Shown one piece after another: positions 28,391 to 53,247 of a stretch of DNA of 64,000 nt. Made by a program: the position numbers and the translations under genes. Under the pieces are notes generated by a model. That model was given only the letters and a program-made list of their open reading frames with translations. It was not told the origin of the DNA and searched no databases. The number at the start of each line of letters is the position of its first letter. Within the stretch, counting starts at the first letter, position 1. The stretch comes from Polytrichum commune (taxonomy: Eukaryota; Streptophyta; Polytrichopsida; Polytrichales; Polytrichaceae), in NCBI GenBank assembly GCA_950295325.1, contig OX485806.1:44077169-44141168 (forward strand). Direction: 5' to 3'.

Positions 28391-29023
28391 TGAACCAAAC
28401 AATTTGCACTCATTTCTTTGGGACCAACTTTGGCTAAAGCCACTTGTGGTGATGCGCCGCCAAACTTTTCTTCGGGACCATCGGATTCAATGATCTTGCA
28501 AACTTGATGATCCCCACCATGTCCTCAAGAAGCCTTGGGGACTTAAACAAGGCATCCACCACCCGCTTTTAAAACCCCACCTAAAACGATGCATTTCTTA
28601 GAAAGCTTGTCCGTTTTAGGTGTATCCTTCATTTGTGCGTTTGAATAGCGCACATAGGCCTTAAGAGGCCCTGGGTGCCTCATTAGCACCAAGTTCATTT
28701 CAACATCCGAACCTTCGAAGCATTTCGAATTGAAATTTCAATCCAACATTAACACCCTCCAAGGTTTTGGGTGCATTCGGTATTCTAGGCCCCAAATACT
28801 ATTTGAGGTTTGCGGGAGCCCTTTCAAAGGACACCTCCATTTTCCTCACCGAATCCACCCTCATGCCCACCATTACCATTAAAATCAATGGTATGGTCAA
28901 ACTCCATTTGCACATGATCCTTGTTCCAATTTGAGCCTCACAACCTTTTGGAAACCCCGGGCTCACCATCATAACCCGCATTTTTGATACCCATGTTTCC
29001 CTCAAAGTGCGAGCTCAAAACTT

Positions 29024-29043
29024 GGAACCCTGCTCTGATACCA
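29024..29043 (-). other. Primer-binding site (initiator tRNA-Met type)
   Basis: The minus strand reads TGGTATCAGAGCAGGGTTCC, with a 2-nt gap to the LTR edge at 29,046. TGGTATCAGAGC is the standard complement to the 3' end of plant initiator tRNA-Met. Confidence 0.9.
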
Positions 29044-29045
29044 AG

Positions 29046-30756: not shown

Positions 30757-30761
30757 GTGGT
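30757..30761. repeat. 5-bp target-site duplication GTGGT (left)
   Basis: Matches GTGGT at 33,185-33,189 outside the other end of the solo LTR. Confidence 0.85.
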
Positions 30762-33184
30762 TGTGAACCCTTAGAGTGGTCCACCACTCCGCGGGACCAT
30801 TTCTAGTTAGAATGTTAGCATTAAAAATTAGAATTGATAGGGAATTTAGAGAAAATTAGTTCATTTAGTGTTTAGCCTAGAAGAAAGAAGGTCAAAATGA
30901 AACTAAATAGTCCTAGAAGATAGTGAAGTAGAGAAAATATGCTAGCTAGTAAAAATAACTAGCTAAACAAATGTTAGTAGAAGCTAGCTAAGAAAATGTT
31001 AGTTTATTAGTTAGTGTGGAGCCACACAAAACTATTGGACATGTTCGGCGTAAGAAGACGATATCGGCTTGAAGACTTTTGAAAAAAAATAGGATGAGAG
31101 TAAGGGGGCTACTTGCCCACTTGCCCCCTTGCCAACTCGATGGCAGAAAAATTAGAAAGATTTCTAAGGTTTCCCGTCGGAGCCACCTCGGCGAGAGGGT
31201 GGCAACCTCAACCGGAAAAACCCCCGAGCAAAAATTTGGGGAAAGGGTTTGAAAAATGGAGCCGGTGGAGGAGGGGTCCAACCCTTTTGTGAGAGGGTTT
31301 AAAAACCCCTCTTCCACCTTTGTAGGAACTCTCTCTTCCTCTAATGCTTGGGCGAAGCCCTGCTTCAATGTAGTTAGAAAAAAATCCTTTAGTATGCATT
31401 TTCAATGGCCTAAAATAAAGGCTCGAGAAACTCCTCTACTTTCTCTCCTAGTTAGAATGTGTGTTTAATAACACAAAAACAAAATTATTCCTTTCTTTTG
31501 TAAAGGTAGGTTGGATTGTAGACTTTTGAGTGGAGGCATTGTAGACCCCATCTGCCAATGCCCTGAAGGCTTAGTTTAAAAACTAGAAAAAAATACATTT
31601 TATTTTTCTCTTAGAGAGATTTCATATAGCTATCCATAGCCGTTTCCCATTTGTGATTTGGTTAAGATGACAATTAGTTATGGATTTTCAAATATGGAGT
31701 AAAAACAACTGGGTGGTTTTTTGGGTAGCGGCTGTTGGTTCAGACTTGCGAGCTCAATAGGAATTTTAATTCTAAGAAGTTATATTTTTCCCAAGTAGAA
31801 ATTTTGTCTAGCTTTCCAAAATTACTTAGAACATTTGGTTTGAGCATGATTTGAATTAGATATGAATTGTGTAAGACGGGACACATAGTTTGAGAACTTT
31901 TGGTTGACTGCTGTATTACAGAGGATCTGTTGGGTTCACTTCGGCTTAACTTTCTAATCACATATTTTTATCAATTACATATTTTTAATATGTCTCCTAC
32001 ATCGAGCCCAAATCAACCAAAGAGAATTGAGGTAAATTAACTAACCTTAAGCCTTCCATTTAGGGTTGGAGGGAGCGCGGCTAAGGTACGCATCTCTAAA
32101 CCCACTCACCTATCTTCTAAGGTCAAGTGGCTTGACCACTTGACTGGCAAGGGAATACCCAACTCCATTGTTTTCGGGGCCCTTGGTATGTTTTGTGACA
32201 GTAGTTTTATTTATTAGCAAGTTTCGTGTGTGATAAGTCGGATTAATCACCGACACGACCACTCTGAATGTTGTTGGTGGAAAGGTGGGGTTAATGACCC
32301 GTGAATCAACTATTATGTTGTTGGCCACATAGATTGGGAGTAATGGCCCCAAGTTATGAAGATTGTGTAACAGGTTGAACCTACAGGTTGCCCGTCACTC
32401 TAGTCCCATTAAGTTGTAATTTTGTGGTCTATCCAATGTAAACACACTTAACAATTAAAACATACAAAATAAATCGTAAACCCTTGTTGGCAAGAGATCC
32501 GAATTGGAAACTTAACTCGGTAGGGTGATACCACCTGTCGGACCGTTGAAGTCCGAAGGGTTTGAGATGTTACTCGACCTTCAAAGGACCTGCACGAGGC
32601 CTTAGAAGGTTCCGAAGTAAGAGGTGCACCAACTAGGTAACGGGTGATGCCTAATATGTGAATGTAGTGAAGTAGGAGGTGCAACCGAAATCAAGTAATT
32701 AAGAAAGAATTTGTATAAAGGGTGGGATTTAGGCCAAGTTCCTCCGCTTAGAAAACTAAATAAAACTAAGTAAAGAAATAGCAATAATTGAATGATCCAT
32801 GAAATTGTCGTTAGTCCGTTCATTGAACTAGGGTGGTATGAGTCACACCGGGTTGGTGTGTACCAGAACCATCCCAATTCACAAATTAGGATTGCCTTGG
32901 TTTCAAGGCTGGTGCGTCTACGCGTAGAATAGGTTGTATGTTAAGGTTAAAACTAAATATGAAATCGGTTAGTGGAATTTAGAGCCACAATAATAAAAAA
33001 CTAAGGCCCAACCTCCGGAGGTACTACGACGCATATTTAATTTCCCTTAAAAATCTAACTACTCACATTATACACCTATCATCCGGGTTCGGCTTGGGCA
33101 CCTGCAAGTGCAGGCCACCTTCACCGAAGGGCTTGTGTGATACTTTTAGGCTCCCTCGAAAGGCGGTGGCCCAAAAGTACCACA
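30762..33184 (+). repeat. Solo LTR, 2.4 kb (family B)
   Basis: TGTGAACCC...GTACCACA, flanked on both sides by GTGGT. There is no primer-binding site to its right and no polypurine tract or coding region to its left, so it is a solo LTR left by recombination between two LTRs. It is similar over its length, in opposite orientation, to the LTR at 45,864-48,757. The ORFs inside it (e.g. 30,988-31,368) are chance. Confidence 0.88.
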
Positions 33185-33311: not shown

Positions 33312-33426
33312 GCCTTCATGCAGCTCGACATAATTGTCAATTCGTGTCCTCGGGCAATCGCATTTATTAGGCACATCAAGGATGCATGGAGACCAAAAAT
33401 ATCAATGTGATATGATGGGGCCTAAC
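33312..33426 (+). pseudogene. MULE family 2 transposase, middle exon fragment
   Basis: Plus-strand coding: FMQLDIIVNSCPRAIAFIRH, then IKDAWRPKISM and YDG up to the edge of the large MULE, with one in-frame stop. In SWIM-type MULE proteins this part lies between the catalytic core and the SWIM finger. Reading across the 9-bp target duplication, the frame continues into 53,239 with RIPHASQNTNAAIESYDSN. It is one gene, interrupted. Confidence 0.65.
33418..33426. repeat. 9-bp target-site duplication (left), GGGCCTAAC
   Basis: Pairs with GGACCCAAC at 53,239-53,247: 7 of 9 identical, both differences transitions. Nine bp is the MULE target duplication length. Confidence 0.65.
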
Positions 33427-33492
33427 GGGGGAGTGCTATCTTGTGAGCGGTGAACAATGAGCGGTGAGCAATGAGTGGTAACTTGTGAGCGG
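33427..33492 (+). repeat. Left terminal inverted repeat of the large MULE
   Basis: GGGGGAGTGCTATCTTGTGA followed by three GAGCGGTGA-like repeats. It pairs with the inverted copy at ~53,170-53,238. Iterated short motifs in TIRs are usual binding sites of MULE transposases (inference here). Confidence 0.7.
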
Positions 33493-34098
33493 TGAGGAAT
33501 GTGAAATATTTGGTAATAGGGCCACTAGTATCCTATAACCGTGGAATTTTGGCATAAAAGTTTTTGATTTTAGGGTTTAATAGGGAGAGGTGTGGGGATG
33601 ATAAGCAACATTGTGAGAAGTGAGCAATGAGAAAAAAAAACCCACATGACTATGGGCATATATACATTTATCATATATAAATACATCTTTATTTCAACTA
33701 TAGATAAATTATTGCATCCACATGTTTTATTTTGCGGTTCAATAATATCATCAATTGTAGCAAAATAATCAACAATGAATTTAACAATGAATTGGTGCAT
33801 GGGTGCATGGATTTGGGTGCATTCTTGTGTGCACTCAAATATAGTGGGTGCATAATATGCAACTTGTACAAAATACCACAAAGAATTTCATCACAACCAA
33901 ACCTAATTACAGGTGCATGTTCATGACCGTGGTATTGAATATATATATATTTGTGGAAAATTGAAGACTATATGTACAACAACAAACATTGAAGAGTCAA
34001 AACATTAGATATATGATGATTTTAATTATTAGAACCCAATTGAAAACTTGGCATTGGAGAACTCTCAACATACATCTTCAAAATATATATGTAAAGTT
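33493..34098. other. Subterminal AT-rich region, no gene seen
   Basis: About 600 bp between the left TIR and the last exon of the methyltransferase gene. A further GTGAGAAGTGAGCAATGAG at about 33,613 resembles the TIR repeats. It is otherwise AT-rich. Confidence 0.45.
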
Positions 34099-34297
34099 TC
34101 ATTCTTCATGGGCCTCTATGGCCATGAACATTTCTACTAATCGTCTAGGATGAAGATCCGTTGATTGGCTTGATGACTCTAGTGAAACTTCTTGTTGTTG
34201 TGCCACGTGTTGTGCCATTGACTTTGCATATATTGGTAGGTCTTGTACAAAATTTGGAGTTGCTGGTACTTTTGCAAACCAATCTTTCAATCCAATG
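34099..34297 (-). CDS. Last exon of the methyltransferase gene
   Basis: Encodes about 66 residues: IGLKDWFAKVPATPNFVQ ... RRLVEMFMAIEAHEE and stop. A 113-bp intron (34,298-34,410; donor GTGAGT, acceptor TTAG) joins it to the long exon; splicing removes the TAG that would end the long exon. No domain is recognised. Confidence 0.55.
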
Positions 34298-34410
34298 CTA
34301 ATCATGGCAAAAAAAAAATATTAATATGAGTTTAAGTAATATATTGAAAAATAAATATATACATGCAAATTCATTGTATGAAATTTGCAATAGCTTGAAG
34401 ACTTACTCAC

Positions 34411-36098
34411 TATTCAGAATCAGATACATTGATGGCCACAAATTTGCGCCCTTGCTTTGGAGCTACATCCTCAAAATTTGGACCAATACTTGAGGAAGGT
34501 TCTGAGGGTGCTTGAAATACATTGGATGCTTCAACATTCAAACTCTGGATTAAAGCATCCAATAACCCCATGTGTATTTCTTTGTCTGCTTCAAAACCAA
34601 AAATATGTCTTTCACTTTCTTTTGCAGCGTGAAAACTTGCACCTGTCCCCACAAACAAATCCAATATACGACCATGTAATGGAGAACATGCTTCAATGAG
34701 TTGTTGCATTACCAAAGGGTTTTTTTCTTTAGCTCCCCTCCAAGGTTGTCCACATTGGTTCAAACACATGTTTGTGTTCGTTATTTGATTGAACAGAACA
34801 TCCAATTGTTTGATGTCCACAAATGGATCTATGTAGCTAGCAGCATCCGAGAGGGCAAATGAACTAGATGGTTTCTTCAAGAGAAGAATGTTGGAAAGAG
34901 CAGTTTGGATATCGTTAGGAGCATTTTGTGGTAAACAGTTCACAATTGTGAATGTTTTGACATGCTCCCTTAAACAAAAATGTTTTGGACGATCTCTGGT
35001 CCCTAGTGCATAACTCACAATTTTTTCTTGCAGTCTTGGCATCTTGGCATTGCACATGATAAGCGTGCAACCATTGTCTGAAAGTATTGATTCCAAAAAA
35101 TCAAACAATGTCTCCCACCATTCATCTGTCTTCAATTGCATCCAAGAAAGAATAGTACGCCCTTCGTCAATACCATGGATTGGCATCCCATCTGGAATAT
35201 CAACGATAATTAGGTCCACACATGCTTTGGTAACAATTCCATTCACGTTGTTTACTTTACCCAAAGAAACATCTTTCATCCATGACATCAATTTTTTGAA
35301 ATCAGGAGATGTTTTTTTGTGTTTTTCATAAAAAACATGACAATCATACCAATCACCTTTAACAAGGCCTACCTTGGGAATAAAATCAAGATTTCTTCCC
35401 GGTTTTGGTACAGTTGCAATTTGTGATCTTGACGACACTCGACCACTTGGTGGCTTTGGATTTGGGACAATATCTTGTTCGTCATTTTTTGTATCGATTA
35501 TTTTTCTTTTTTTCCTCAATTGAATATGTGGTCTGGAAGACTGCGATGGTTGTTTGGAGGACTCCGATGGTTGTTCAGTTTCAAATGTTGGCATTTCACC
35601 CACATTAATACCAACACTTCTTTGTTCTTCAACTCTTGCATTGCAATCTTGAAACAATTGTGTTTCTTCTTCTGGTAAAGAACCATTGGTAAGGTCCAAA
35701 TACCAACCTCCCCCTTCGCGATGTGCAGATGGCCATTTTCTTTGTTCAATATTCCAAAGCATTCCTTCTGCAAGTGTCCAAGAAGACCACCATGATGGAC
35801 GACCTCGAAGTTTTCCATTTGCAATCAAAATGAATTTAATGTATCGATAAATTATACGACACATGATTGCAGCAGAACCTGGTTGATCTTTCCATATATT
35901 GTTCCTCCACACAGTCTTTGCATTCACCTTAGTGGGTATTTCCACTAAAAAGGCCATGTTCCCAATTTTTTCCTCCCATGTTCTAATATATGAGACAACA
36001 TCCGGAACATCCGAAGTCATATTGTCCAACACCAATCGTTGTGTTGCATCATCATGATTGATGTAGTAGTCAATTTTTTTGTATGCCTCCTCTTTGAG
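34411..36098 (-). CDS. N6/N4-type (beta-class) DNA methyltransferase domain, long open exon
   Basis: About 562 codons, open throughout. The start is set by a splice acceptor (TTATACAG, ending at 36,099), giving LKEEAYKKIDYY; the upstream ATG lies in the intron. Residues ~1-180: WW-rich segment (RGRPSWWSSWTLAEGMLWN). ~185-240: Ser/Gln/Arg linker. ~270-400: DLIIVDIPDGMPIHG at the place of motif IV (DPPY in active enzymes), then WMQLKTDEWWETLFDF and DNGCTLIMC. ~485-540: NPLVMQQLIEACSPLHGRIL, then DLFVGTGASFHAAKESERHI with the FxGxG SAM-binding motif I, then FGFEADKEI. Motif IV before motif I is the beta-class order of N6-adenine/N4-cytosine methyltransferases. The DPPY replacement by DIPD may mean altered or lost catalysis. 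These enzymes act on DNA; a nuclear place is inferred. Confidence 0.72.
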
Positions 36099-36240
36099 CT
36101 GTATAACATACATAAAAATAATTAATATACAATATACAAATAGTTATGTATCATAATACATATATCAAACATACATATATATTATATATCTGATACATAA
36201 ATATACCACATATCAAATAGTAAACTTCATATATAAATAC

Positions 36241-36645
36241 CTGCCACCAACATGTTTTTCTTGTCAGCCATGGATCCAATGCATCATTTCCTCCAATTTC
36301 TAAAGGAAACGATGCAGCATGTTTTGTGTCATCATTAGCATTCCAGAGCTTTAGCCAATTCGTTTTCTCTTTGGAATCAACCTGAGATTGACAAAGACGA
36401 CGGAGACGATCAAGGGTCATTTGCACATTGTCTCCATTTTTGTCATAGTGTTCTTTGATTTCATCAAAAAACTCTGTGCCATTTTCGGGATCAGCGATGG
36501 CCAAAATTTTACCCAGTGTTGACTGTTTTTTAGTTTTGATGGATTGTGACGCTGTTGCAATTATTTGTTGCAATCCGATGTGATCTGCAACCTCCAAGTT
36601 GATATAGTTTTCAGTTGCTTTTGCAACCTCGTCCTCAATTTCACT
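36241..36645 (-). CDS. Helical exon of the methyltransferase gene
   Basis: 135 open codons: SEIEDEVAKATENYINLEVA ... FDEIKEHYDKNGDNVQMTLD ... WLKLWNANDDTKHAASFPLE ... TRKTCWWQ. Flanked by acceptor GTACAG at 36,646 and donor GTATTT at 36,240 (142-bp intron to the next exon). Predicted mostly helical. No family is recognised. Confidence 0.55.
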
Positions 36646-36737
36646 CTGTACAATACAAAGTATTGATGAGCATAAAGAAAGAAAATCTAGAAATCCATAA
36701 ATATGAATTGACATAGTTAAAGAAATACAAAATTTAC

Positions 36738-36936
36738 CTTGTAAATATGTTCAACCAGGATCTTTTGTGTGACATTATACCATTTTTTGGAATTTACTGA
36801 TTTTTTCTTTTTGCACAAAGCCATTTGCTCAGGACTAATCCTTCCTTCCCACCATTCCAGCGGTTGACTTCCATATTTTGTCACTTTGAAGAGTGTGTGA
36901 ATGAATCGAGGTTTGACAACATTTTTCTCTGTTGAT
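36738..36936 (-). CDS. Small exon of the methyltransferase gene
   Basis: STEKNVVKPRFIHTLFKVTK ... LEWWEGRISPEQMAL ... VEHIYK. Acceptor ATTCAG at 36,937, donor GTAAAT at 36,737. The frame joins the previous block (phase 2) and the next (phase 0) without a stop. Confidence 0.5.
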
Positions 36937-37052
36937 CTGAATCATTTCAAAATATAAACATAAATATAAAAATATGAAAAACTTAAAGATGAAACATGTA
37001 AAGAAAATTAACAATATAAGGTAATCAAAATACAAATGAATAAAATACTTAC

Positions 37053-37645
37053 ATGTTGATATCATCGCAGAGACATGTGTTAACAGAGTGATTTTCTTTT
37101 CATCCATCAAGGATTATCGATGTAGGGCTTATATGATATTCAACACCACCCAACTTCATCTCTTTGGTATTGTACCACGCTTTAAAGCGATGATTTCCAT
37201 CCCAAATGTGAAACATTTTATTTTTGAATGCATGCAAACCATGCTCTGTCAGATAGGCTTCAAATTCTTCATTTTATTGTTTCCAAATTTCATCCCATTC
37301 ATTCACAATGTCATCATTGACATCAATCGTGTATCCCTCTTCATGCTTTACCGAGACATAAAATCATGCAGATCCAAGAATATAACCATTGAGAAACGAA
37401 CGTGACAAAATTGATACATCATCGTCCAATGCGGGCCTAACCACCTCCATGCCAATCATTCGACACAAAGGGATAGGCACATGATATTTCATGACACATA
37501 TATCACTCAATGTCGAGTTGATTTTTTGTTTTCGCTCCAAGAGTTTCATTCTCGTGTACTTGATGGATTTCCCTTCATGTTCAGCTGGGTTCTCCAATGT
37601 AGGCAGAGGTGTCCATAATCCTTCATGAATATCATTTTTTCCACT
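37053..37645 (-). pseudogene. ParB/sulfiredoxin-like domain exon
   Basis: Acceptor GTGCAG at 37,646, donor GTAAGT at 37,052. The pattern fits the ParB/Srx nuclease-like fold: GMEVVRPALDDDVSILSRSF early, then FYVSVKHEEGYTIDVNDD, and late HIWDGNHRFKAWYN, the DGNHR signature. In bacteria and phages this domain binds or cuts DNA, or hydrolyses nucleotides, and is often joined to N6/N4 methyltransferases, which supports the reading with exon 34,411-36,098. A few in-frame stops are present while the frame itself is kept. Confidence 0.55.
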
Positions 37646-37744
37646 CTGCACAATATTCATGTATGTAAAAGAATATAAACCTAATAATAATAGAGAATAT
37701 ATATAAATTAAAAAATTCAAACCATTTAATACAAATGAAAATAA

Positions 37745-38431
37745 AATTTATCTTCTTTTTTTTGCGTCGATTAGTTACACCTTTAGAAGGTCCACCAATA
37801 AATTGAGATGTAGATATTGTCCCTTGAGACAATGTCAAAGAATGCTATTTATGCTGTGATCGTTGATTCACAAGAGAAAGTTGTTGTTCTAAGAATTGTT
37901 CAGTATGTTGAGAATCTGGTGTCTCTTGAAAGTGTTGATTTCCTGGAGAAGTTTGTGTATCCTGAAAGTGTTGATTCTCTTGAGAGTCTTGTGTATCATC
38001 ATATTGCAGATTGTCTTGATTTTCTTGATGCGATTTCTCTAAAGTGGATTCCTCAATAACTTGTTCTGCAACTAAATCCACAATATTATCCACAATTTTT
38101 GTTGCAACATCTTCAGTGATATTTTGATGTTGTCCCAAAAGTGGCTCCAATCTTTGCGACAATGTCATTGTATTTTGTTTAGAATGGACTTGTGCTTGCT
38201 CGTTTGAATGCATGGAAGATGCACAATCTTCTTCCACTGTTTCAAGAACAACATCAGGTTGAAGTCCCTTGTTGCGATGAGACCTTCGCGTAGGGGTGGA
38301 GTTTTCACCTTGTCTTCTTTTCCTAGTTGTTGATTTAACGCCTTGTTGATGAATATTTTGTATTCTTGGCGAGAGAGGTTGTAACGCATTGGAGGATGGG
38401 TCTTTTTGTTTTCCTTTAGAAAATATATTTT
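37745..38431 (-). pseudogene. Ser/Gln/Glu-rich linker exon
   Basis: After acceptor TTGCAG at 38,432: ENIFSKGKQKDPSSNALQPL, then the basic TTRKRRQGENSTPTRRSHRN (candidate nuclear localisation signal), then EDVATKIVDNIVDLVAEQVI and repeated (D/E)-x-Q-x-x-Q-x-x-Q units (ENQHFQDTQTSPGNQHFQET). Low-complexity linker between the kinase-like and ParB-like parts. It ends in RRKKKK near 37,745. Confidence 0.45.
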
Positions 38432-38500
38432 CTGCAAACAAAAAACATAAATGAAAATGCAAACAAAAAATGATAGAAATAACTTCATCGTATATATATT

Positions 38501-40068
38501 TCAAAATAATACATAATGGATTTTACAAATCTTATACTTTATTAATATAAAAATGTATAATTTCTTCCGACGTTTGGAAGGGATTTCATCATCACAATCA
38601 ATTTGACGACTATGAACTCTATTCCATTCTGGTAGAGTAAGATAACGTTGCCGGATGTGTTTGTTGAAGGGAAAAATATGAAAATATGGTTCGTGAGACA
38701 ATCGATTCATGACATTAGTAGGGGTCATGCGAAGCTCAGTGGTTGAAGTGCATGACATTCGACGAATACAATGTAGCAAAAGATTATAAGAACGAGAGTG
38801 AATGACTTTGAGATATATTGGATCGACATATAAATCCCAAATAGCCTCTGCAATCTTTGATACAGAATATGACTCTGTCTTTTCGGTGTGGCACGGACGA
38901 ACATTGTGGTATTTGGTGAAGAACAACTCAGGATATACCTACCAACGTTTTTGGAGCCTAGAATGTCTCAAAGATTCAGACTGCAATAAATGATTTGAAT
39001 GTCGTCTATCCGACGATATTGTTGCCGATCCCCAATCACCAATGCCTATGTAAATTTCATCTTTATCATCCATCTCACCAAAATGGAATAAGATGTTTGT
39101 AAAGGATAAATCACAATGAAAAACATTGTGAATGGTGAGTACATCGGCCATTATTTGAATGAAGGTGATCGCAAGGGTACAACGGTTTAACAAGAAAAGC
39201 CTTAACCGCTCCAATTCTTGAATCTTAGAAATTTGTTCTGGATGATTTTTCTTGAGTATTGTGAGACGTTAAAAAACATCATACTCATTAGTTCCATGGT
39301 CTTTCACACTTTTGAAAATATCTCCCAATGTCCCATCATTCTAATAAGGCAAAAAGATGGCAGGTGCGAGTGTCGTTTGGAAAAAAAACGGTTTGATAAC
39401 ACCACCATGATCTATGGATGCCACTGAATAGAACTCCTTCATGCTTACATGATGAGGATTTCTATTATGATCCAAAAAAAAATTAATGGCATATGGTACG
39501 AATGGATCAATATCTGGATTGTCCTTAATGAAACATTTCCAACCACTCCATATGAACCACGGCCTAGTCGTTCATGCTTCTCAATAACAACATCTCTCCA
39601 AGCAAAAAGAAAAGCACCACCTTCAGGAATGACGTGTCGATCGACACGGTTTAAATTTTTGACATGAGTTTTTCTACGTCTTGAGAGTTGTGGAATCTCC
39701 ACTCGCCACCGATCGGAGATAAATTTTTGCGCTTCTAACTTTTCCAATGTCCAACCATGCGTAATTTTCTGATGCACCTTTGAAACCACATCGGGCATTT
39801 GTCCAACAAAATTAGAAGAGACGTTGTCTTTCCAAGTATTATAATTGGACATTTTTTTGCATGATGGAAAACGTATCGAGATGCAATCATCAATCATGAT
39901 CTTCAGACGTTCACGTAAAAGGATAGGGCCGAACATACCCATCGATACAAAATTTTGATGGATTGAATCCCAAGACATATCACCCCACCATTCTACAAGG
40001 AAGCTTTGCACACTTAAAGTAACCATTTGATTAGGCTTATTGAGAAGAGGTTCCACAGTTGTAAGCAA
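38501..40068 (-). pseudogene. Protein kinase-like domain of the fusion gene
   Basis: N-terminal ~150 residues: SVQSFLVEWWGDMSWDSIHQ, then WRDVVIEKHERLGRGSYGVV with the glycine-rich loop GRGSYGVV. Further on, coding at ~39,260-39,540 shows VASIDHGGVIKPFFFQTT and DGTLGDIFKSVKDHG (hinge and helix D), and 38,939-39,214 shows the catalytic loop VFHCDLSFTNILF (H-x-D-x4-N) and IGDWGSAT in the DFG position. The VAIK lysine is not evident (AINFF at that place). A C-terminal block follows: YHNVRPCHTEKTESYSVSKI ... WNRVHSRQIDCDDEIPSKRR. Several in-frame stops and one frame slip make it non-functional in this copy. A serine/threonine-type kinase fold is likely; substrate unknown. Confidence 0.6.
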
Positions 40069-40279
40069 TAATCACCTTGAATAGTTTGTTGAGGATAACA
40101 TCAACGAAAAATGAATACCTGCATATAAGTGTCAATAAAACCACATGAAATTACCATATAGTATGGGTTGTATACTTAATGTTGAAGAAATGAAATATAG
40201 GATTTAGATACACATCTTAAAAGTAAGTGAAAAAATCGATTGGTAGACGGATAGAAGAAAAATATATTATAGAAATACA

Positions 40280-40490
40280 TATATGAACACCTAGGACGTG
40301 AGAATGCATGAAACATCCATCCACGTCTGCTAGGGCCATTTGAAGTTGAATGTAAAAAATCAAATCCAAGATATGTACATGAAAATTATAATCATGTGAA
40401 CCATATCAGCTGGAAATGATAGGTACGATGTAATTACACGTCCTAACACCCAGGACGTGAGGAAGCATAAAGCATCCATCCACGCCAGCT
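40280..40490. repeat. Duplicated ~45-bp unit with CACGTCCT/AGGACGTG arms
   Basis: Two copies (near 40,288 and 40,452) share CAGGACGTGAGxAxGCAT and CATCCATCCACG. In the right copy CACGTCCT (40,438) and AGGACGTG (40,453) form an inverted repeat. They lie in the 5' region of the kinase-like gene, next to the hairpin array. Confidence 0.6.
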
Positions 40491-40841
40491 GAGATGATTC
40501 GGAATTTAAAAGAAAAACAAAGCAAGACAAAATAAAACAAATAAAAATAGAACAAGGCAAAAAAAAATAAGACAAAACAAAACAAAACATAATGGAGTGA
40601 AAAAATACCTGGAATGAATGTTGATGCCTTGGAACTTGACACACAACCAGATCGGAGGTGTAGTGCTACACATGAAGTTCAGAACATCAATTAAAACAAA
40701 ATCCAATTATAAATAACAATTATAAATAACAAAACAAAACAGAAGTTGTGAAAATTTTAAAAGCAATTAAGAACAAGATTCAATACATAATACATACATT
40801 AAGAACCCTAATACATAAATCGAATTAGTCCTCATTGATGG

Positions 40842-41408
40842 TTGTGCGTTGGCGCACAACCAGAAAGCAGAGGCATGCCATAACAAATTTAAAAGCATTA
40901 ATAGAAGTACAAAAAAAATAAATGGAAAAATACTTGAATAATGGTTGTGCACCAGCGCACAAGCAGAATGCAACACGAAGGCAGATGAAGTGCAAACTAG
41001 AGAAAATAAAATGAAGCCTAAACTAAATGTAAGAACTAAAGCAAAAAATAAATTGAAGCACTAAGAAAGGATTGTGCGCCAGCGCACAAACAACTTCTAG
41101 TAGAAGGGCGCAACAAATCGTATGCAAATGATAGATCTAAAGAACAAAGTAAACATAAATTGTCCTAAAGGATGTTCGTGCGTTGGCGCACAAATAACTT
41201 TCAGCAGAAGGGTGCAACAAATCGTATGCAAATGATAGATCTAAAGAACAAAGTAAACAAAAAGAGTCCTAAGATGTTTGTGCGCCAGCGCACAAACAAC
41301 TCTCAGCAGCAGGGCTAAACAAATCTTATGTAAATGAAAGGATTGAAAGGATTGAAAGGAAAAATAAACAGAAGTCGTCCTTATGCAGGCTTGTGCGCTA
41401 GCGCACAA
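40842..41408. repeat. Array of six 18-bp hairpins (TTGTGCGCCAGCGCACAA type)
   Basis: Palindromes with 8-bp arms TTGTGCGC/GCGCACAA (0-2 mismatches) start at 40,842, 40,945, 41,072, 41,176, 41,278 and 41,391, spaced 102-127 bp. The DNA between them is partly similar (e.g. CAAATCGTATGCAAATGATA repeated near 41,115 and 41,219). The array sits between the divergent kinase/methyltransferase gene and the SWIM transposase gene. It could be a bidirectional regulatory region, protein-binding array or transcribed hairpins. Confidence 0.85.
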
Positions 41409-42000
41409 GCAGGTCCAACCAGCAACTTCTCTACAAATTTGCTCTCATACGCAGTGCTAAACAGAAGCTCGTTCATGTAAGTTTGTTGTAAAAATGCCTT
41501 CTCATCCTTATTTATACGCCTTAGCCGTGGCAGCCGTGAGCGCGAAGGGGTTTAGGTTTAGGTCTAGGTTAAGAGGGGAATGAAAGGTTGGTGGAAAAAA
41601 AAAAAATACAAATCCCATTGATTTTAGAAAACTTTAGATAGGTATATCTCCTACATATTAAAATTAATTAGATTGAAATTTTTTTTCTCATAGTTACACC
41701 CATCATATGTAGTGATATACAAAAAATTAGATTTTTTTCATTAAATTTCAAATTCTTATGAATTTCTAAAAACTCTGAAATTGATGACATTTTGGAAATT
41801 TTCCGAAATCATTTTTTTGCACATGATTGGAGAACATTCTATGAAGGTTATAGGGTTTAAATCCTTCATTTCCCCAACATCATATAAAAAGTAAAATTAT
41901 TCGCCAAATTGTTATTATCGATTCATATGTATTTGTTCATTATATAACACATTTTTCAATGATGTCCGTGCCCGTTTTTCTTCCGTTTTCATTTAGGAAT
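41409..42000. other. AT-rich intergenic DNA
   Basis: About 590 bp between the hairpin array and a microsatellite. No ORF. GTTTAGGTTTAGG occurs near 41,550. Nothing else can be supported. Confidence 0.5.
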
Positions 42001-42245
42001 TCATACATATATAGATATATAGATATATAGACATATAGATATAGATATAGACATATAAACATATAAACATATAAACATATAGACATATAGATATAGATAT
42101 AGACATATAGATATAGATATAAACATATAGATATAGACATATAGATATATAGATATAGACATATAGACATATAGATATATAGATATAGACATATAGACAT
42201 ATAGATATATAGATATAGACATATAGACATAGATATATAGATCTA
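42001..42245. repeat. ATAGAC/ATAGAT microsatellite
   Basis: About 240 bp of (ATAGAT/ATAGAC/ATATAG) repeats upstream of the SWIM transposase gene. The two minus-strand Tyr/Ile/Ser ORFs through it are translations of the repeat, not genes. Confidence 0.95.
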
Positions 42246-42611
42246 TATTCTAAATTTTTAATATTTTTATTAAGTTATATACATTAGTTAAATCTCTTCA
42301 TATATTCTTCCCAATGTTATAATGGACATGACTTATGGTGTCATGGACTTAAGATCCACATCTCACATGTGCATTTGGGTTCGCTATGGTTTTGTTTCCA
42401 AATGAGATAGTTTATAGGGTTTGGTTTAGGGTTCTATGTTTGGCCTAATCTATTCTTTGACTGTCAGTGTAAGTTGTCTACTTGTGTATTATTGGATGCT
42501 ATAGTATTCAAAGTTTTGATCTACACCCCATTTTTTAGTACATACCATTCAGTATAATAATCTCCGCCCATCCAATATTATTGTGACGTGCATCTATTGC
42601 TTTCTTTCTTC

Positions 42612-43365: not shown

Positions 43366-43369
43366 CCAC

Positions 43370-44398
43370 AAATCGGAAGAGGTCTTCCTCTTCCTCCAGT
43401 AATGGTTCCTCTACCGGTTCGTCATCAGGGTTAGGCTCTAGGGAAGTTGTGGGAACCTTAGCCTTAAGGGCTGCGTTCTGCAAGAACTCTGGAAGTTCTG
43501 CGAATTTTGGTGACTTTTCAGACTCATTCGACTTCTCGGAACCTTCACCCATCACGGTTTGTGCCCTCTTCTGAGCCCTAGTGACCACTGCCACGTCTAT
43601 TTTCTGCTTTAGTTTTTTAGGGGGAACCAGGATAGCCCGTAAAGAAGAATCGGCTAGCTCGTGAGAGATGAAGTTGCTATGACTATCATTTGGGATAGGA
43701 AGGAATGGAGCTGAACAACTTGTGCTCGCCCTATTGTTATCAATGAACCTCGCGTCTTGGGTTTGTGCATGACCAAGGTTAAGGGGACCTTGGGATGTTG
43801 GAGGCCCATTCATGTTTTGCGCCCATTGTTGGTTAGTATCCTGTCCACTCCCCATAAGATGTTGAGGAGGGTTGTCGGTATACTGACCGTTAAGACCATA
43901 AGCCTGACCTTGGTTCATTTGGTACCCATAGAATGGGTTGCCTTCATTAGGGGAGTTATTGAAGGTATTACCTTGTTGTGCAACTTGGGGTCCATTGTTG
44001 AACCTATTTGGTTGGTTCCGGCCCATCTGAGGGACATACTGTTGGCTTACCATTCCTACCAAGTTCGAGTCGGCTTGCCTACCACCGGCTGGGGGGTTTT
44101 GAGGGTACAAATTTTGTGGACCTTGATAGTTGTTCCCCCTATTACCTTGGTTTTGGTGGTTGGGTGGACCGTAGTTTTGTTGGCCATTGCTTTGTGGGTT
44201 ACCTTGGTGATAATTAACCGACATTCCTCCTTGGTTCTGTTGATTCCTATCATAGAAGAATGCCGGAAGTTGTTGATTCAGCTGAGAGTAATGGGAGGGT
44301 CGCTCCGCGAGAATCCTACGACAATTATCGACCGGGTGATTACCCCCACAATGGTTGCAGACCACCCCCGTCTCGATCCAACACTTACCTGGCCCCAA
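43370..44398 (-). pseudogene. Gag C-terminal region: zinc knuckle, Gln/Asn-rich tract, acidic tail
   Basis: GVVCNHCGGNHPVDNC is a CCHC-like cluster near the start. It is followed by ~170 residues very rich in Gln, Asn, Gly and Pro, then VAVVTRAQKRAQTVMGEGSE and the acidic EEPLLEEEEDLFRFVDR. The VTRAQ block is shared with the element at 844-4,515. Broken element. Confidence 0.7.
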
Positions 44399-44432
44399 AA
44401 TGTGAACCTTGCCGCAAGTGGGACAAACTCCT

Positions 44433-44990
44433 TTACCGTTGTTCCGGGCTTGAGTCTGGGAGTGGCCTTGTTGTGGACGGGGGGGGTGGGGCTACTAGGT
44501 TACCTGTCAACCTAGGCTCCGTGCAAAATTGATTACTGTGGCCAGGTTTGTTGCAATTACGACACCAAATGTTGGTGCCATAATTACCCGCCTCCGAGGC
44601 CGGCGGAACTGGTTGTGCTAAGGGCCTAGACGTGATTGCCATTGTTAGCTGCTCTGTGAGGGTCTTGAGCGACTGCATGACATCGCTCCTCAACTCGTCG
44701 TTGGCCTTCTTAACTCTAAGTTCTAGCTCCTCGATCGTGGTGTGGCTCGGAGGGCTAGGGAGTGCTAAGAGCTCAGGGGGTGGCCTCGTAGCCAAAGGAA
44801 CCGGGGCCGCTCGGTGGACTGCGTATGCATCCGGTCGGGATGGCTCCAGCTGAGGAGGCTTACTCTGCTCGGGAGGAATGTAGGTTGTGGGTAGGAAGGC
44901 TGGCACAGGTGCAATAGTGCAATTCCACATCCGCTCATTTTGTTTGTCTACACCTTCGATCCTCCTAGCCTCGGCTTTAGCTTCTTCCAA
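44433..44990 (-). pseudogene. Gag middle region with CCHC zinc knuckle
   Basis: A Pro-rich N-terminal half, then LELRVKKANDELRSDVMQSL (likely coiled coil), then IWCRNCNKPGHSNQFC, a CX2CX4HX4C nucleocapsid knuckle. It lies directly downstream of the capsid stretch. Confidence 0.72.
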
Positions 44991-45017
44991 ATCCTGAGGG
45001 TTGGAGTTAAGAATTTC

Positions 45018-45725
45018 TCAGATTGTACCTTGTTTGTTGAACCCTTGTATGAAGTAGAATTTAATCGTGTCATTTGTGAGAAGGGTTCCTACATAACGAG
45101 TTACCACCGTCTCGAACCGTCGGATGTATGATGTAATACCCTCGGATGGGCCTTGCCGCATGTTCGTTAACGCCACGAGTGCGCTTTGTTGGCCCATTTC
45201 CGGTCTAAATTGTCTAAGGAATGCCGTCTGCAATGCTTGCCAGTCCCTAAATGTCCCCTCATCGTGGGATCGGTACCACTCATACGCTATACCCTCTAGC
45301 GTAGTAGAAAACCAAACGAGTTTGTACGTGTCTTCGGCTATCATGTTGGCCAACATTACCTCAATATATCGTTCAATGTGGGTTGAAGGATCCTCATGCG
45401 GGAGGCCACCGAACTTCGGAAAATAACTCGGCATCGCCCTTGGCGCTAATGCTTGTGGCATTACAATGGGAGGCCCTCTAGGAGCCATCATTGCATCCAA
45501 AGGATTCGCCATGAGTTGGGGTCGTGCCACCCTAACCGGACTTTGTGGGGTGGGGGATTTCTCCCTCTCGCGCTCGGACTCTGGACCTAGACCTTGATAT
45601 TTATTTTCCTTAGTCTTTCCGGGTTTTGGTGATTCGTTCTTCGACCTCTTACCTGGTGTTGCCTCCGATGCAAATACGGTTGTTGTTGTTGGGGTGTCGT
45701 ACGATCGTCCCCTAGTACTAACCAT
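45018..45725 (-). CDS. Gag capsid region (Retrotrans_gag type), family B
   Basis: A likely ATG at 45,723-45,725 (MVSTRGRSYDTPTTTT), about 140 nt after the PBS. The basic N-terminal region is KRSKNESPKPGKTKENKYQG. From residue ~110: PSYFPKFGGLPHEDPSTHIE, then WFSTTLEGIAYEWYRSHDEG and FRDWQALQTAFLRQFRPEMG, then EGITSYIRRFETVVTRY, the Retrotrans_gag pattern. It forms the particle capsid in this family. Part of an incomplete element. Confidence 0.8.
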   Translation of the reverse strand: MVSTRGRSYDTPTTTTVFASEATPGKRSKNESPKPGKTKENKYQGLGPESEREREKSPTPQSPVRVARPQLMANPLDAMMAPRGPPIVMPQALAPRAMPSYFPKFGGLPHEDPSTHIERYIEVMLANMIAEDTYKLVWFSTTLEGIAYEWYRSHDEGTFRDWQALQTAFLRQFRPEMGQQSALVALTNMRQGPSEGITSYIRRFETVVTRYVGTLLTNDTIKFYFIQGFNKQGTI

Positions 45726-45840
45726 AGCACAAGTGGCCCATGACGTATGACTAATTTCTATTGGACTAAACTCTTCTTCTCTTAGTCTAAACGTATAAGT
45801 ACTCAAAGAGATATCATTCGAGCATGGCAGGGGCATCCAC

Positions 45841-45860
45841 CCTCCCGGCGGACGCACCAA
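45841..45860 (-). other. Primer-binding site of the family B element
   Basis: The minus strand reads TTGGTGCGTCCGCCGGGAGG, separated by 3 nt from the LTR edge at 45,864. It resembles the TGGTGCC...CCGGG class of plant PBS, but the exact tRNA cannot be named from the sequence alone. Confidence 0.6.
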
Positions 45861-45863
45861 TTA

Positions 45864-48757
45864 TGTGGTACTTTTGGGCCACCCCCTTTCGAGGGAGCCT
45901 AAAAGTATCACACAAGCCCTTCGGTGAAGGTGGCCTGCATTTGCAGGCGCCCAAGCCGAACCCGGATGATAGGTGTATAATGTGAGTAGTTAGATTTTTA
46001 AGGGAGATTAAATATGCGTCGTAGTACCTCCGGAGGTTAGGCCTTAGTTTTTTACTAGTGTGGCTTTAAACTCCACTAACCAATTTCATATCTAGTTCTA
46101 ACCTTAACCTACAACCTATTCTACGCGCAGACGCACCAGCCTTGAAACCAAGGCAATCCTAATTTGTGAATTGGGATGGTTCTGATACACCCAACCGGGT
46201 GTGACTCATACCACCCTAACTCAACGAACGGAATAACGGCAATTTGATGGACCATTCAATTCTTCCTATTTCTTTATTTAGTTCTATTTAGTTTTCTAAG
46301 CGGGGGAACTTGGCCTAAGTCCCACCCTTCACACAAATTCCTTCTTAATTACTTACTTTTGTTTGCACGTCCTAACTTACTACATTAACATATTAGGCAT
46401 CACCCCTTACCTCGGGTCTCTTGCCAACAAGGGTTTACGATTTATTTTGTATGTTTTGATTGTTAAATGTGTTTACACTGGATAGACCACGAAATGCAAC
46501 TCAATGGGACCAGGGTGACGGGCGACCTGTAGGTTCAACCTGTTGCGCAATCTTCATAAATTGGGGCCATTACTCCCAATCTATAGGGCCAACAACATAA
46601 TAGTGGATTCGCGGGTCATTAACCCCACCTTTCCACCAACAACATTCAGAGTGGTCGTGTCGGTGATTAATCCGACTTACCACACACGAAACTTGCTAAT
46701 AAATGAAGCTACTACCACAAAACATACCAAGGGCCCCGAAAACAATGGAATTGGGTACTCCCTTGGCGGTCAAGTGGTCAAGCCACTTGACCTTACGAGA
46801 TAGGTGAGTGGGTTTAGAGATGCGTACCTTAGCCGTGCTCCCTCCGATCCTAAATGGAAGGCTTAAGGTTAGTTAATTTACCTCAATTTTCCTCGGTTGA
46901 TTTGGGCTTGATGTAGGCCGAGCCGCTACCTCCTTCCTTGCTCCACTTTCCGAGCGTCGACCTTGCCTCCTTCTTTGTAACTAGTTTGGTAGTAAGCGTA
47001 CCTTAGTTAACAATTAAAATATAAAGTGTTATTCTGCCCTGTAATTTAATCCTAAGCATAATATTTATACTTAGTGCACCAAATTATCTTTCCAATGATC
47101 TAAAAATCACTCTAATCGGATAAGAAATGCAAAAGTTATGAGGGTTGGAAGTGTGAGGTCGATTCAACCGACCCTTCCAACCCACCTATCTACCTTCTAA
47201 CTTCAAAAATTCATAGCACATTCCTTACTACTTGGATCTAGGCTTTCCTTATACCATTGGAAAGCTATGAACAAGCTCTAACTAGAAACATTATGACATC
47301 AGCAGGTTAAGCTAATAGAAATTCAGCGGACTCCTTGTAACACAGCAGTCAATCAAGAAGGCTTAAACTATGTATCTCGCCTTCAACAATTCATATCTAA
47401 TTCAAATCTTAGTCAAATCAAACGTTCTATATGACCCTGGAGAGATATTAAAAAGATGTATTTGATAAAAATATGTGATTAGAAAGGTAAGCCGAAGTGA
47501 ACCCAACAGGTCCTCTGTAATGCAGCAGTCAACCAAAAGTTCTCAAACTATGTGTCCCATCTTGCACAATTCATATCTAATTCAAATCATGCTCAAATCA
47601 AATGTTCTAAGCCATTTTGGAAAGCTACACAAAATTTCTACTTGGAAAAAATATAATTTCTTGGAACTTAAATTCCTCTTGGGCTCGCAGGTCTGATCCA
47701 GCAGCCGCTACCCACAAGACCACCCAGTTTTTCTACTCCATCTTTGAAAATCCATAACTAATTGTCATCTCAACCAAATCACAAATGGGAAACGGCTATG
47801 GATAGCTATATGAAATCTCTCTAAGAGAAAAATGATAAGTATCTTGTTCTAGCTTTTGAACTAAGCCTTCAGGGCATTGGCAGATGAGGTCTATAATGCC
47901 TCTACTCAAAACTCTACCATCCAACCTACCTCTACAAAAGAAGGAATAATTTTATTGGTGTGTTAATAAACACACAACCTAACTAGGAGAGAGAGAGTAG
48001 AGGAGGTTCTCAAGCCTTTCTTTTAGACCATTGAGAATACATGCTAAAGGATTTTTTCCTAACTACATTGAAGCAGGGCTTCGCCCAAAAACTAGAGAAA
48101 GAGAGAGAGCTACAAGGTGGAAGGAGGGGTTTTTAAACCCTCTCACAAAAGGGTTGGACCCCTCCTCCACCGGATCCATTTTTCAAACCCTTTCCCGAAA
48201 TTTTGGCTCGGGGGTTTTCCCGGTTGAGGTTGCCACCCTCTCGCCGAGGTGGCTCCGACAAAAAACCTTTAGAAATCTTTCTAATTTTTCCGCCATCGAG
48301 TTGGCAAGGGGGCAAGTGGGCAACTATCCCCCTTGCTCTCTTTCTTTTTTTCTTCAAAAGTCTTCAAGCCGATTTTATCTTCTTACCTAAAACACCTCCA
48401 ATAGTCTTGTGTGCCTCACACTAACTAATAAACTAACACTTGCTTAGCTAGCATTTACTAACATTTGCTTAATAGCTAGCATCTACTAACATTTGCTTAA
48501 TAACTAGCACCTACTAATATTTGCTTAATAACTAGCATCTACTAATATTTGCTTAGCTAGTTGTTTTTACTAGCTAGCACATTTTTTCTAGTTTGCTATC
48601 TTCTAGCACTACTTAGTTTCATTTTGACCTTCCTTCTTCTAGGCTAAATGCTAAATGAACTAATTTTTCCTAAATTCCCTATCAATTCTAACTTTTAATG
48701 CTAACATTCTAACTAAAAGTGATCCCGCAGAGTGGTGGACCACTCAAAGGGTTCACA
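45864..48757 (-). repeat. 5' LTR of the family B element, 2.9 kb
   Basis: Plus-strand ends TGTGGTACTTTTGG...GGGTTCACA, matching in reverse the ends of the solo LTR. It is ~470 bp longer than the solo copy. An internal duplication at ~47,340-47,660, where a phrase AATTCATATCTAATTCAAAT recurs ~190 bp apart, accounts for part of this. Its right edge abuts SWIM transposase coding sequence exactly. ORFs inside are chance. Confidence 0.85.
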
Positions 48758-50461
48758 GACACAAAAATATATCAAACCATCCTTGCAGTTTCAACACAAG
48801 CAAATATGCAAGGATTACAAGGACGCGGTAACAATGGACGATGCCGAGACTAAGTATCACGTGATTCGTTCTTGGTGGTTGTCATCTGGAGCTGCCACAG
48901 AAGAAGGCATCCTTGGCCTTTCGGAGTGGTTGGGATTTTGGCACTTCTGTTATAGACAATGGGGTGGTCATATGCTACTTGTAAGTGCATACCACACTAC
49001 ATTATTTAATGTCATTGAACTTCCCCGTATTTTTTCCATTTTTATAAATTTGTGTCTTGTTTTTCTTAACCCCGTATTTGTATGTTGTTCGTAGGATATG
49101 ACAATAGATGAGCGTGCAGAAATGCCAACATGCAACCTTGCCGAGACTGTTCATAACAAATGGCTCCAACAATCCGGCAACAAGATGACTTGCCTGTATG
49201 AAGCTACTGTTGATGACATGATCCGTGCCTTCATGCAAATCGCGAATTACCGTGCATGGTTGAAAGGGGGTTCTCATGGTAAAGGTCCTGATTCGGCATC
49301 CTTAAAACTTAAGGCGGCTGCCAGGTGTGGAGATCCAAAAATTTTGGCTGATGCCATGAAGTCTTTCCCGGGGGCAGAAGACGTCAATACTAGAGATTGT
49401 ACATTGGAAGGGTTCGAGCTATTTGGGTCCACCAAACGAAAACTCAACATGCCCCCTGGTGCTGATTGTGATTCTCATCGACCCGACAAAGTGAATTTTT
49501 CAATTTCTCGCCCTAACACTCGTGCAACTTGTCAACGCATAGAGGAATCGTTGAATTATGCACAACAAGGTGTGACTCATACTACATCCGTGTTAGAGAT
49601 TGATTGTCTTGCTTCCAATTGGCACATTGCAAGATTGCCACCCAACTCAGCTAGACGATGTTGGGCATTACAGGCCATTACAGGGACGATGTGCAATGCC
49701 AAAGTCGGTACTGGAAAACATGGCACACCTGCTCCAACATACAAAGGGTTCAAAAAAGAATTTCGCTCTCCCAACAATGTGGAGTATGAATTTTGGTTTT
49801 GCCCTGACGACATCAAGCGTTGTGTGAGTGGTAGTAAGAAGAAATATGTGTTGGATTGGCCTATAGTGCCTAACACTTGGCCGGTGAAGATAGGCACCAA
49901 TCTATCAAGAGAGGAGGTGTTGGCGCTTGAGGACGCCGGATTTCAACTACAACAAAGGGAAGCATTATCCCCCCGTCGTAGGCTTTCTACAATTGCAACC
50001 CTTCCCATCCCTCGCTCGCATTTTCGTATGCCACCCAACCCGGACGCCCACCCTACATTCAGGTTTGGAAAGACAGTTTGTCGCAATCCGACCGCACCGA
50101 CAGCGGATCACAAAAACAAATGGGAGAGCGCCGGACTCATGGATGGTTATTTTGTGGTTGGGGTGACTGCCATTCCATATCCAGGTTTTGGAGTGATAAT
50201 CAACATTGTCTCCAAAGAGGATATTACACACCGTGTCACAATTGGTGACATCCCGCATTGCACATGCCCGGACTTCACGAAAATGTCCTCTCATGCATTG
50301 GGAAAGAAAGGAAAATGGGTGTATTGTAAACATCTTTATTATGTGTTTAGATTTTTGTGCAAGGTGGATTACGAGAGTGACAAATTCATTCATGCACCTA
50401 CATGTACCTATAATGAGGTCATGTGACTACTTGAACTTGCTGGTATTCTAGAATGTGAGTA
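48758..50461 (+). pseudogene. SWIM-type MULE transposase of the large element, C-terminal part
   Basis: Resumes at TQKYIKPSLQFQHKQICKDY, matching copy 1 after its second catalytic Asp. Then ETKYHVIRSWWLSSGAATEE and FWHFCYRQWGGHMLL, a 114-bp phase-0 GT-AG intron (48,981-49,094), then DMTIDERAEMPTCNLAETVH and NKWLQQSGNKMTCLYEATVD, a long middle region, and the SWIM finger CTCPDF...YCKHLYYVF (~50,258-50,350; CxC...CxH). An in-frame TGA at 50,424-50,426 is followed by codons LLELAGILECE ending at 50,459-50,461. A second copy of this tail at 52,864 has no TGA there, so the ancestral protein probably ended at 50,461. SWIM fingers in MULE proteins bind DNA or protein. The gene is inactive because the N-terminal catalytic part is missing. 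Confidence 0.78.
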
Positions 50462-53169: not shown

Positions 53170-53238
53170 ATTTGGATTCATTGCTCATATGTTACTGCTC
53201 ACCACTCACTGCTCATCGCTCATAAGATAGCTTCCCTC
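53170..53238 (-). repeat. Right terminal inverted repeat of the large MULE
   Basis: The minus strand reads GAGGGAAGCTATCTTATGAG, then GAGCAGTGAGTGGTGAGCAG. It pairs with 33,427-33,492. Confidence 0.7.
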
Positions 53239-53247
53239 GGACCCAAC
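53239..53247. repeat. 9-bp target-site duplication (right), GGACCCAAC
   Basis: Partner of 33,418-33,426. This copy keeps the reading frame of the interrupted gene open (D-G-T-Q-R). Confidence 0.65.

What the first reader, a model, noticed from the sequence alone, without database searches (positions are those of the whole stretch)
34099..40068. Kinase-like / ParB-like / N6-N4 DNA methyltransferase fusion gene as transposon cargo
Seven same-strand coding blocks carry, in order, a glycine loop GRGSYGVV and HCDLSFTN catalytic loop, a basic linker, a DGNHR ParB/Srx signature, and a beta-class methyltransferase (motif I FVGTGASF). Phase-compatible introns link the last five. ParB-methyltransferase pairs are known from phages and bacteria; adding a kinase, in an intron-bearing gene inside a MULE, would be new to me. 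It could modify, recognise or protect element DNA, for instance to mark new copies or escape silencing (speculation).
Basis: partly seen in the sequence, partly recalled or inferred. Interest (0 to 1): 0.9.

Follow-up and report, generated by a model that had tools for sequence, protein, structure and literature searches.

The report
Jumping gene carrying bacterial-style DNA-marking gene
An old, partly broken jumping gene of about 20 kb carries, beside its own cut-and-paste enzyme, a second gene that appears to join a kinase-like part, a short bacterial-style ParB signature and a DNA-methylating enzyme, which suggests that some jumping genes may chemically mark their own DNA.

Summary
The methyltransferase exon is sound (Pfam N6_N4_Mtase, E 1.5e-8) and the kinase is weakly supported (Pkinase, E 8.5e-4, below cut-off). 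The ParB assignment rests on one box (DGNHRFKA); its three profile or sequence tests failed. Five introns can be joined in phase, so one ~1,670-aa gene is possible, but this copy is a pseudogene in its front half: seven stops, one frameshift, one lost donor. The methyltransferase half is open. They enclose this gene and a divergent SWIM transposase gene. The termini carry tandem TGAGCRR heptamers. Between the genes lie six 18-bp palindromes, conserved above their flanks and without another site within three substitutions in the window: candidate binding sites. ParB-plus-methyltransferase genes opposite the transposase are already published for an algal Sola1 transposon (PMC12477816 passages). 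This is a new variant of a known kind; the kinase part and MULE-like host are what differ. No homologue could be reached.

The parts
33418..33426 (.). left target-site duplication GGGCCTAAC
   Evidence: 7 of 9 identical to 53239-53247, in the register that the terminus alignment predicts
33427..33495 (+). left terminal inverted repeat, with tandem TGAGCRR heptamers (33444-33478 as an unbroken chain)
   Evidence: 73% over 70 columns to 53239-53178 inverted, raw score 28 vs maximum 19 in 150 simulations; heptamer chain
33614..33634 (+). subterminal TGAGCRR heptamer chain (3 units)
34410..36098 (-). exon 6: amino-methyltransferase exon, open to the TAG at 34412-34410; motif IV position reads DIPDG (35201-35187), motif I DLFVGTG (34661-34641)
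   Evidence: Pfam N6_N4_Mtase 1.5e-8; phage profile 20.3 bits vs 4.3 for the best of 880 decoys; positions
36241..36645 (-). exon 5, open frame, no family match
   Evidence: phase and splice sites; no Pfam match at or above cut-off
36738..36936 (-). exon 4, open frame, no family match
37053..37645 (-). exon 3: ParB/Srx-type box DGNHRFKA (DGNHR 37201-37187); three in-frame stops
   Evidence: profile and sequence tests negative
37752..38431 (-). exon 2: basic and Q-rich linker; one stop (37847); following donor reads AT instead of GT
38572..40026 (-). exon 1: N-terminal region and kinase-like domain; frameshift near 39540, stops at 39343, 39271, 38941
   Evidence: Pfam Pkinase 19.2 bits, E 8.5e-4 on the joined read-through; motifs and positions; stops
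40842..41408 (.). six 18-bp palindromes TTGTGCGCNNGCGCACAA at 102-127 bp spacing, between the two divergent genes; candidate binding array
   Evidence: 0-2 mismatches; no other site of the window within three substitutions; arms 96% vs flanks 66% majority identity
42612..43571 (+). SWIM transposase gene, first part (ATG 42612); homology to the second copy reaches 43331
   Evidence: 34% and 31% identity to second copy at 9454-9795 and 9867-10058; ATG
43572..48757 (-). gypsy-like fragment (gag-like ORFs from 45860 leftward; LTR 48757-45864) that interrupts the transposase gene; left limit not determined (about 43330-43700)
   Evidence: zinc-knuckle pattern in ORFs by eye, no Pfam match of 43136-44491; LTR match to 30762-33184
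48800..50423 (+). SWIM transposase gene, last part with the SWIM zinc finger
   Evidence: 52% and 38% identity to 11238-11471 and 11575-11973; Pfam SWIM E 0.11, below cut-off
53178..53238 (-). right terminal inverted repeat with TGAGCRR heptamers (53195-53222)
53239..53247 (.). right target-site duplication GGACCCAAC

Best explanation
An old MULE-type transposon (33427-53238) that carries two divergent genes: a SWIM transposase and an accessory gene coding for a kinase-like, ParB-like, amino-methyltransferase protein. Most likely the accessory protein recognised DNA arrays of its own element (the palindromes between the genes and/or the heptamers in the termini) and methylated adenine N6 or cytosine N4 there, so tuning transcription, transposase access or silencing; the kinase-like part would switch this. 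Shown: termini, gene order, methyltransferase homology, arrays. Inferred: single polypeptide, ParB function, activity, target and effect. This copy can no longer make the full protein.
For: Methyltransferase. Kinase: motifs in order. ParB-type box. In-phase introns. Termini with near-duplicated target site. Transposase relationship to the second copy. Heptamer chains of 3 or more units: 4 in the window, 3 at this element's ends and 1 beyond the second SWIM transposase, 0 in 40 simulations. Palindrome arms more conserved than flanks. The same layout, ParB plus methyltransferase gene opposite the transposase, is published for a Sola1 transposon, whose authors suggest binding and marking of the element's own sequence.
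Against: ParB not recovered by Pfam, PDB or a 16-sequence phage ParB-methyltransferase profile. The catalytic motif is DIPD, not DPPY, so activity is doubtful (motif meaning recalled). The kinase copy reads YAIN where the catalytic lysine is expected (recalled). Front half disabled. Pfam MULE domain not found in the transposase pieces. Both structure models were too poor to use (pLDDT 37 and 30). A single copy, no homologue. Palindrome arrays also occur upstream of the second transposase, where I saw no methyltransferase gene, so they may serve the transposase.
Confidence: 0.45

Rival explanations
1. Two neighbouring accessory genes, not one: a kinase-like gene (exon 1) and a ParB-like/methyltransferase gene (exons 2-6) that starts in the linker. 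The element carries both, and no fusion protein exists.
For: The kinase-linker donor is weak (GTCGGAAG). Exons 2-6 alone would code for about 1,190 residues, near the 1,104 aa reported for the Ectocarpus protein, for which no kinase is mentioned.
Against: The junction can be made in phase; exon 2 has its first ATG only at codon 73 of 226. Promoters and terminators between the two were not examined.
Confidence: 0.3
2. A host gene captured by chance (Pack-MULE style), with no role for the element.
For: MULEs are known to capture host genes (general knowledge; PMC6431247 passage).
Against: A complete-looking multi-exon gene rather than a fragment; bacterial-type methyltransferase; the same pairing is known from a transposon of another superfamily.
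Confidence: 0.1
3. A DNA-binding protein whose methyltransferase fold no longer methylates: it reads or coats element DNA, or competes with host silencing factors.
For: Motif IV reads DIPDG in an otherwise open 562-codon exon, so the change is unlikely to be recent decay; motif I is kept.
Against: The same position could be a family variant that still works; no relative to compare.
Confidence: 0.15

Closest known systems
ParB-like plus N4/N6-methyltransferase accessory gene of Sola1-1_Ec32, Ectocarpus (PMC12477816, passages)
   Same: ParB-like and amino-methyltransferase parts in one gene; opposite strand to the transposase; 21.5-kb DNA transposon
   Different: Sola1 transposase, not SWIM/MULE type; no kinase mentioned (1104 aa); brown alga; sequence homology not testable here
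Phage and haloviral ParB-methyltransferase fusions (e.g. HSTV-1 gp52: ParB_N E 1.3e-5, just below its cut-off; N6_N4_Mtase E 1.2e-35)
   Same: Domain order ParB then beta-class methyltransferase
   Different: About 400 aa, no kinase, phage genes; only the methyltransferase end is alike in sequence
Mutator-like elements (MULEs)
   Same: Terminal inverted repeats, about 9-bp target duplication, SWIM zinc finger
   Different: Short degenerate termini made of heptamers; Pfam MULE domain not found; an accessory gene of this kind did not turn up in my paper searches
N4CMT of bdelloid rotifers (PMC8885841, passages)
   Same: Bacterial-type amino-methyltransferase in a eukaryote
   Different: Host gene with a chromodomain that helps silence transposons, not carried by one

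Membership tests
Mutator-like element | terminal inverted repeats | tested here: met
   33427 and 53238, score 28 vs 19 maximum in 150 simulations
Mutator-like element | 8-11 bp target-site duplication | tested here: inconclusive
   7 of 9 identical at the predicted place; three shifted pairs also reach 7
Mutator-like element | MULE/DDE transposase domain with SWIM finger | tested here: inconclusive
   SWIM E 0.11 below cut-off; no Pfam MULE match; the middle of this element's gene is missing, so the catalytic part was tested only in the second copy; homologous genes
beta-class N4/N6 amino-methyltransferase | family profile and S-adenosylmethionine motif I | tested here: met
   PF01555 35.3 bits, cut-off 26.7; DLFVGTG
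beta-class N4/N6 amino-methyltransferase | catalytic motif IV (D/N/S)PP(Y/F/W) | tested here: not met
   reads DIPD at 35201-35190; the motif definition is recalled
ParB-CTPase fold | box II DG-H-R type signature | tested here: met
   DGNHRFKA, only hit of DG[HNC]HR..A in six frames, 0 in 40 simulations; a stricter pattern had no hit
ParB-CTPase fold | family profile or fold | tested here: not met
   no Pfam match up to E 5, no PDB match up to E 10, phage profile: exon not among the eight best, shuffles on top; model unusable
eukaryotic-type protein kinase | family profile | tested here: inconclusive
   PF00069 19.2 bits, E 8.5e-4, cut-off 31.7
eukaryotic-type protein kinase | ordered P-loop, HxD...N, DxG-like, PE motifs | tested here: met
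   GRGSYGVV, HCDLSFTN, GDWGSA, YPEL in order; labels recalled; catalytic lysine position reads YAIN
transposon ParB-methyltransferase accessory proteins (Sola1 type) | sequence homology to the algal proteins | not testable with these tools
   no eukaryotic sequence collection held

The most novel reading that the evidence does not exclude
A MULE that marks itself: a kinase-regulated, ParB-like clamp loads at the palindrome array between its two genes and methylates the heptamer arrays of its termini with a bacterial-type mark (6mA or 4mC), which identifies or times its own copies independently of host 5mC silencing. It would be the first kinase-ParB-methyltransferase fusion that I know of.
Probability: 0.2. 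Interest if true: 0.88.

Novelty: new variant of a known kind. Interest (0 to 1): 0.62.

Why it matters
If eukaryotic transposons of different superfamilies repeatedly carry a bacterial-type DNA-methylating protein beside their transposase, self-marking may be a general transposon strategy. It would also give a directly testable source of 6mA or 4mC in eukaryotic genomes, where the presence of such marks has been controversial (so stated in the abstract of PMC8885841). The termini and arrays defined here say where to look for the mark.

Tried and rejected
Rejected: the 2.4-kb inverted repeats 30756-33184 / 45864-48763 as giant MULE termini. They are LTRs of one family: the left is a solo LTR (30762-33184) with the 5-bp duplication GTGGT, the right one (45864-48757) is followed by gag-like ORFs.

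Rejected: recoding of stops. All three stop codons occur among the seven.

Led nowhere: viral contigs with the methyltransferase, transposase and ParB sequences; phages (none at E 0.1; a 146-aa piece at E up to 10 matched 217 records weakly, best listed E 0.09, 15 of the 20 listed rows annotated as methyltransferases); plasmids (one Lactococcus methyltransferase at E 0.05); one genome-contig scan; Rfam; NCBIfam (three methyltransferase models and one kinase model, each far below its cut-off); two single-sequence structure models, too poor for a fold search, so none was run. A lesion-clustering estimate (all seven stops in the first 910 of 1,674 codons, p about 0.014-0.016) is post hoc and weak.

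Papers: PMC12477816 passages and section 5 part 1 of 2 (which does not hold the Sola1 passage); PMC12704722 passages; PMC8885841 passages; PMC6431247 passages; the others only as search listings. Iyer 2011 (PubMed 21507349) and the paper asked for as PubMed 26660621 (recalled as Iyer 2016) are not held. Petroll 2025 is known to me only as a citation.
Full report
What is there. The window comes from a genome not held here; its intron-like gaps and nested LTR elements point to a eukaryote, probably a land plant (my judgement, not tested). On the minus strand between 40026 and 34410 lie six exon-like blocks. The last exon (36098-34410) is open for 562 codons (577 from stop to stop); the longest stop-free run in 300 simulated sequences of the same 9-kb region was 274. 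Pfam assigns its end to N6_N4_Mtase (E 1.5e-8, 35.3 bits, cut-off 26.7). PHROGs gives DNA methyltransferase families (best E 3e-5). A profile of 16 phage and viral ParB-methyltransferase relatives, cut to the methyltransferase part, scores it at 20.3 bits, against 4.3 for the best of 880 decoys (280 window ORFs of 60 aa or more outside the gene and 600 shuffles). The order, a motif-IV-like DLIIVDIPDG before motif I DLFVGTG, is that of the beta class (class order recalled). The catalytic tetrapeptide reads DIPD rather than DPPY, so activity cannot be assumed.

The kinase part. A joined read-through matches Pkinase with 19.2 bits (E 8.5e-4; cut-off 31.7) over residues 149-342; the unjoined middle fragment alone gave E 0.016. 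Motifs come in the usual order: GRGSYGVV, HCDLSFTN, GDWGSA, YPEL (labels recalled). In the PDB only two ribosomal S4 chains came up, at E 1.4 and 2.2. This copy has a frameshift near 39540 and stops at 39343, 39271 and 38941, and YAIN (39493-39482) where the catalytic lysine would be expected.

The ParB part. The box DGNHRFKA is the only DG[HNC]HR..A hit in the six frames and none appeared in 40 simulations; a stricter pattern that I also tried had no hit. But Pfam up to E 5, PDB up to E 10 and the phage ParB profile (the exon is not among the eight best, shuffles lead) did not find it, and the AlphaFold2 model was unusable (mean pLDDT 30; the methyltransferase model 37). ParB-like is therefore a motif-level statement, made more likely by the known pairing with this type of methyltransferase.

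One gene? The exon model 40026-38572, 38431-37752, 37645-37053, 36936-36738, 36645-36241, 36098-34410 gives five introns of 92-142 nt, all phase compatible once the kinase frame after the frameshift is used. Introns 3-5 are clean GT-AG. Intron 2 begins AT where a GT may have stood (compare AAG|ATAAAT with AAG|GTAAAT of intron 4). Intron 1 has a weak donor, chosen because it is the in-phase one of the two that I looked at. So the fusion is plausible, not proven. All seven stops, the frameshift and the lost donor fall in exons 1-3; exons 4-6 have none before the terminal stop (p about 0.014-0.016 for the stops, post hoc).

The element. A comparison of the flanks gave one clear inverted match, 33426-33495 with 53239-53178 (73%). 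Its raw score is 28, against a maximum of 19 in 150 simulations and at most 20 against the other real stretches of the window, apart from the two overlapping stretches that score 28. Right outside stand GGGCCTAAC and GGACCCAAC, 7 of 9 alike; three shifted pairs also reach 7 of 9, so the duplication is good but not conclusive. The element would be 19,812 bp. It encloses the accessory gene (minus) and a SWIM-type transposase gene (plus, 42612-43571 and 48800-50423) split by a gypsy-like fragment. That fragment is named by eye: LTR, putative primer site and zinc-knuckle pattern; its ORF 43136-44491 has no Pfam match. The transposase is homologous to a second, more complete copy at about 9.4-12.0 kb, which is itself split over several frames (34%, 31%, 52% and 38% identity over four stretches, E 2.8e-11, 1.3e-5, 6e-19 and 4e-21). 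Pfam's MULE domain is not found, and SWIM only at E 0.11, so MULE is a provisional class.

Candidate binding arrays. Both termini contain tandem 7-bp units TGAGCRR. Chains of three or more units (one mismatch allowed per unit) occur four times in the window: left terminus, left subterminal, right terminus, and at 13285-13265 downstream of the second SWIM transposase; 40 simulated windows had none. Between the divergent genes lie six 18-bp palindromes TTGTGCGCNNGCGCACAA (40842, 40945, 41072, 41176, 41278, 41391; 0-2 mismatches). The next best sites in the window differ by four or five bases. Their arms keep 96% majority identity against 66% in the flanks, and 6 to 8 of 8 arm pairs remain: the palindrome was kept while the surrounding repeat decayed. 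Upstream of the second SWIM transposase there is likewise an array, 16 copies of another palindrome (CCTCTCGGATCCGAGAGGG, up to 4 mismatches), core 95% against 83% near flanks. This cuts both ways: it suggests a general design of these elements, but also that the arrays may serve the transposase rather than the accessory protein, or be ordinary repeats of this genome.

How it probably works. For bacteria and phages: ParB-fold proteins bind nucleotides, the studied clamp members load on DNA, and the fold is often fused to N6_N4 methyltransferases in phages (PMC12704722 passages). For transposons: the Ectocarpus authors propose that such a ParB-methyltransferase protein may bind and epigenetically modify its own transposon sequence (PMC12477816 passage). 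By analogy I infer binding to the palindromes and/or heptamers and methylation of nearby adenine or cytosine amino groups, with the kinase-like part as a switch. Nothing in these steps beyond the sequence features is shown here.

Novelty. The pairing and its place opposite a transposase are published. I did not find a kinase in such a protein, nor such a gene in a SWIM/MULE element, in ten searches of the held open-access library. Searches returned no paper; some searches listed only 15 of 394, 8 of 157, 10 of 12 and 12 of 33. Subscription papers, including the two cited for algae, were not seen. Beyond weak hits to the methyltransferase end, no relative was found in viral, phage, plasmid or prokaryotic collections, and no eukaryotic collection exists here, so copy number, intact relatives and selection remain open.

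Noticed in passing
5395-8451: Sixteen copies of a 19-bp palindrome CCTCTCGGATCCGAGAGGG (up to 4 mismatches), spaced mostly about 137 or 235 bp, upstream of the second SWIM transposase gene; core more conserved than flanks.
   Followed up: partly
9386-13298: Second SWIM transposase copy, more complete but split over several frames, with a TGAGCRR heptamer chain at its presumed right end (13285-13265); no convincing left terminus found in 2000-9400.
   Followed up: partly
30762-33184 and 45864-48757: Two inverted LTRs of one gypsy-like family; the left is a solo LTR with 5-bp duplication GTGGT, the right is followed by gag-like ORFs and interrupts the transposase.
   Followed up: yes
50394-50576 and 52868-53050: 183-bp direct repeat (84%) of the transposase 3' end, 2.5 kb apart, inside the element's right part; origin unclear.
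   Followed up: no
53400-53723: A further SWIM-like open frame just outside the right terminus (CxC...CxH pattern by eye; no Pfam SWIM match).
   Followed up: no
23768-30024: Recent LTR element: repeats 23768-24746 and 29046-30024 are 99.8% identical; a related sequence lies at 1-848 (89.5%).
   Followed up: no
12239-12796: 186-residue minus-strand open frame between the second transposase and its presumed right terminus; possible further cargo.
   Followed up: no
55573-56739: 389-residue open frame, gag-like by my judgement, without a Pfam match.
   Followed up: no
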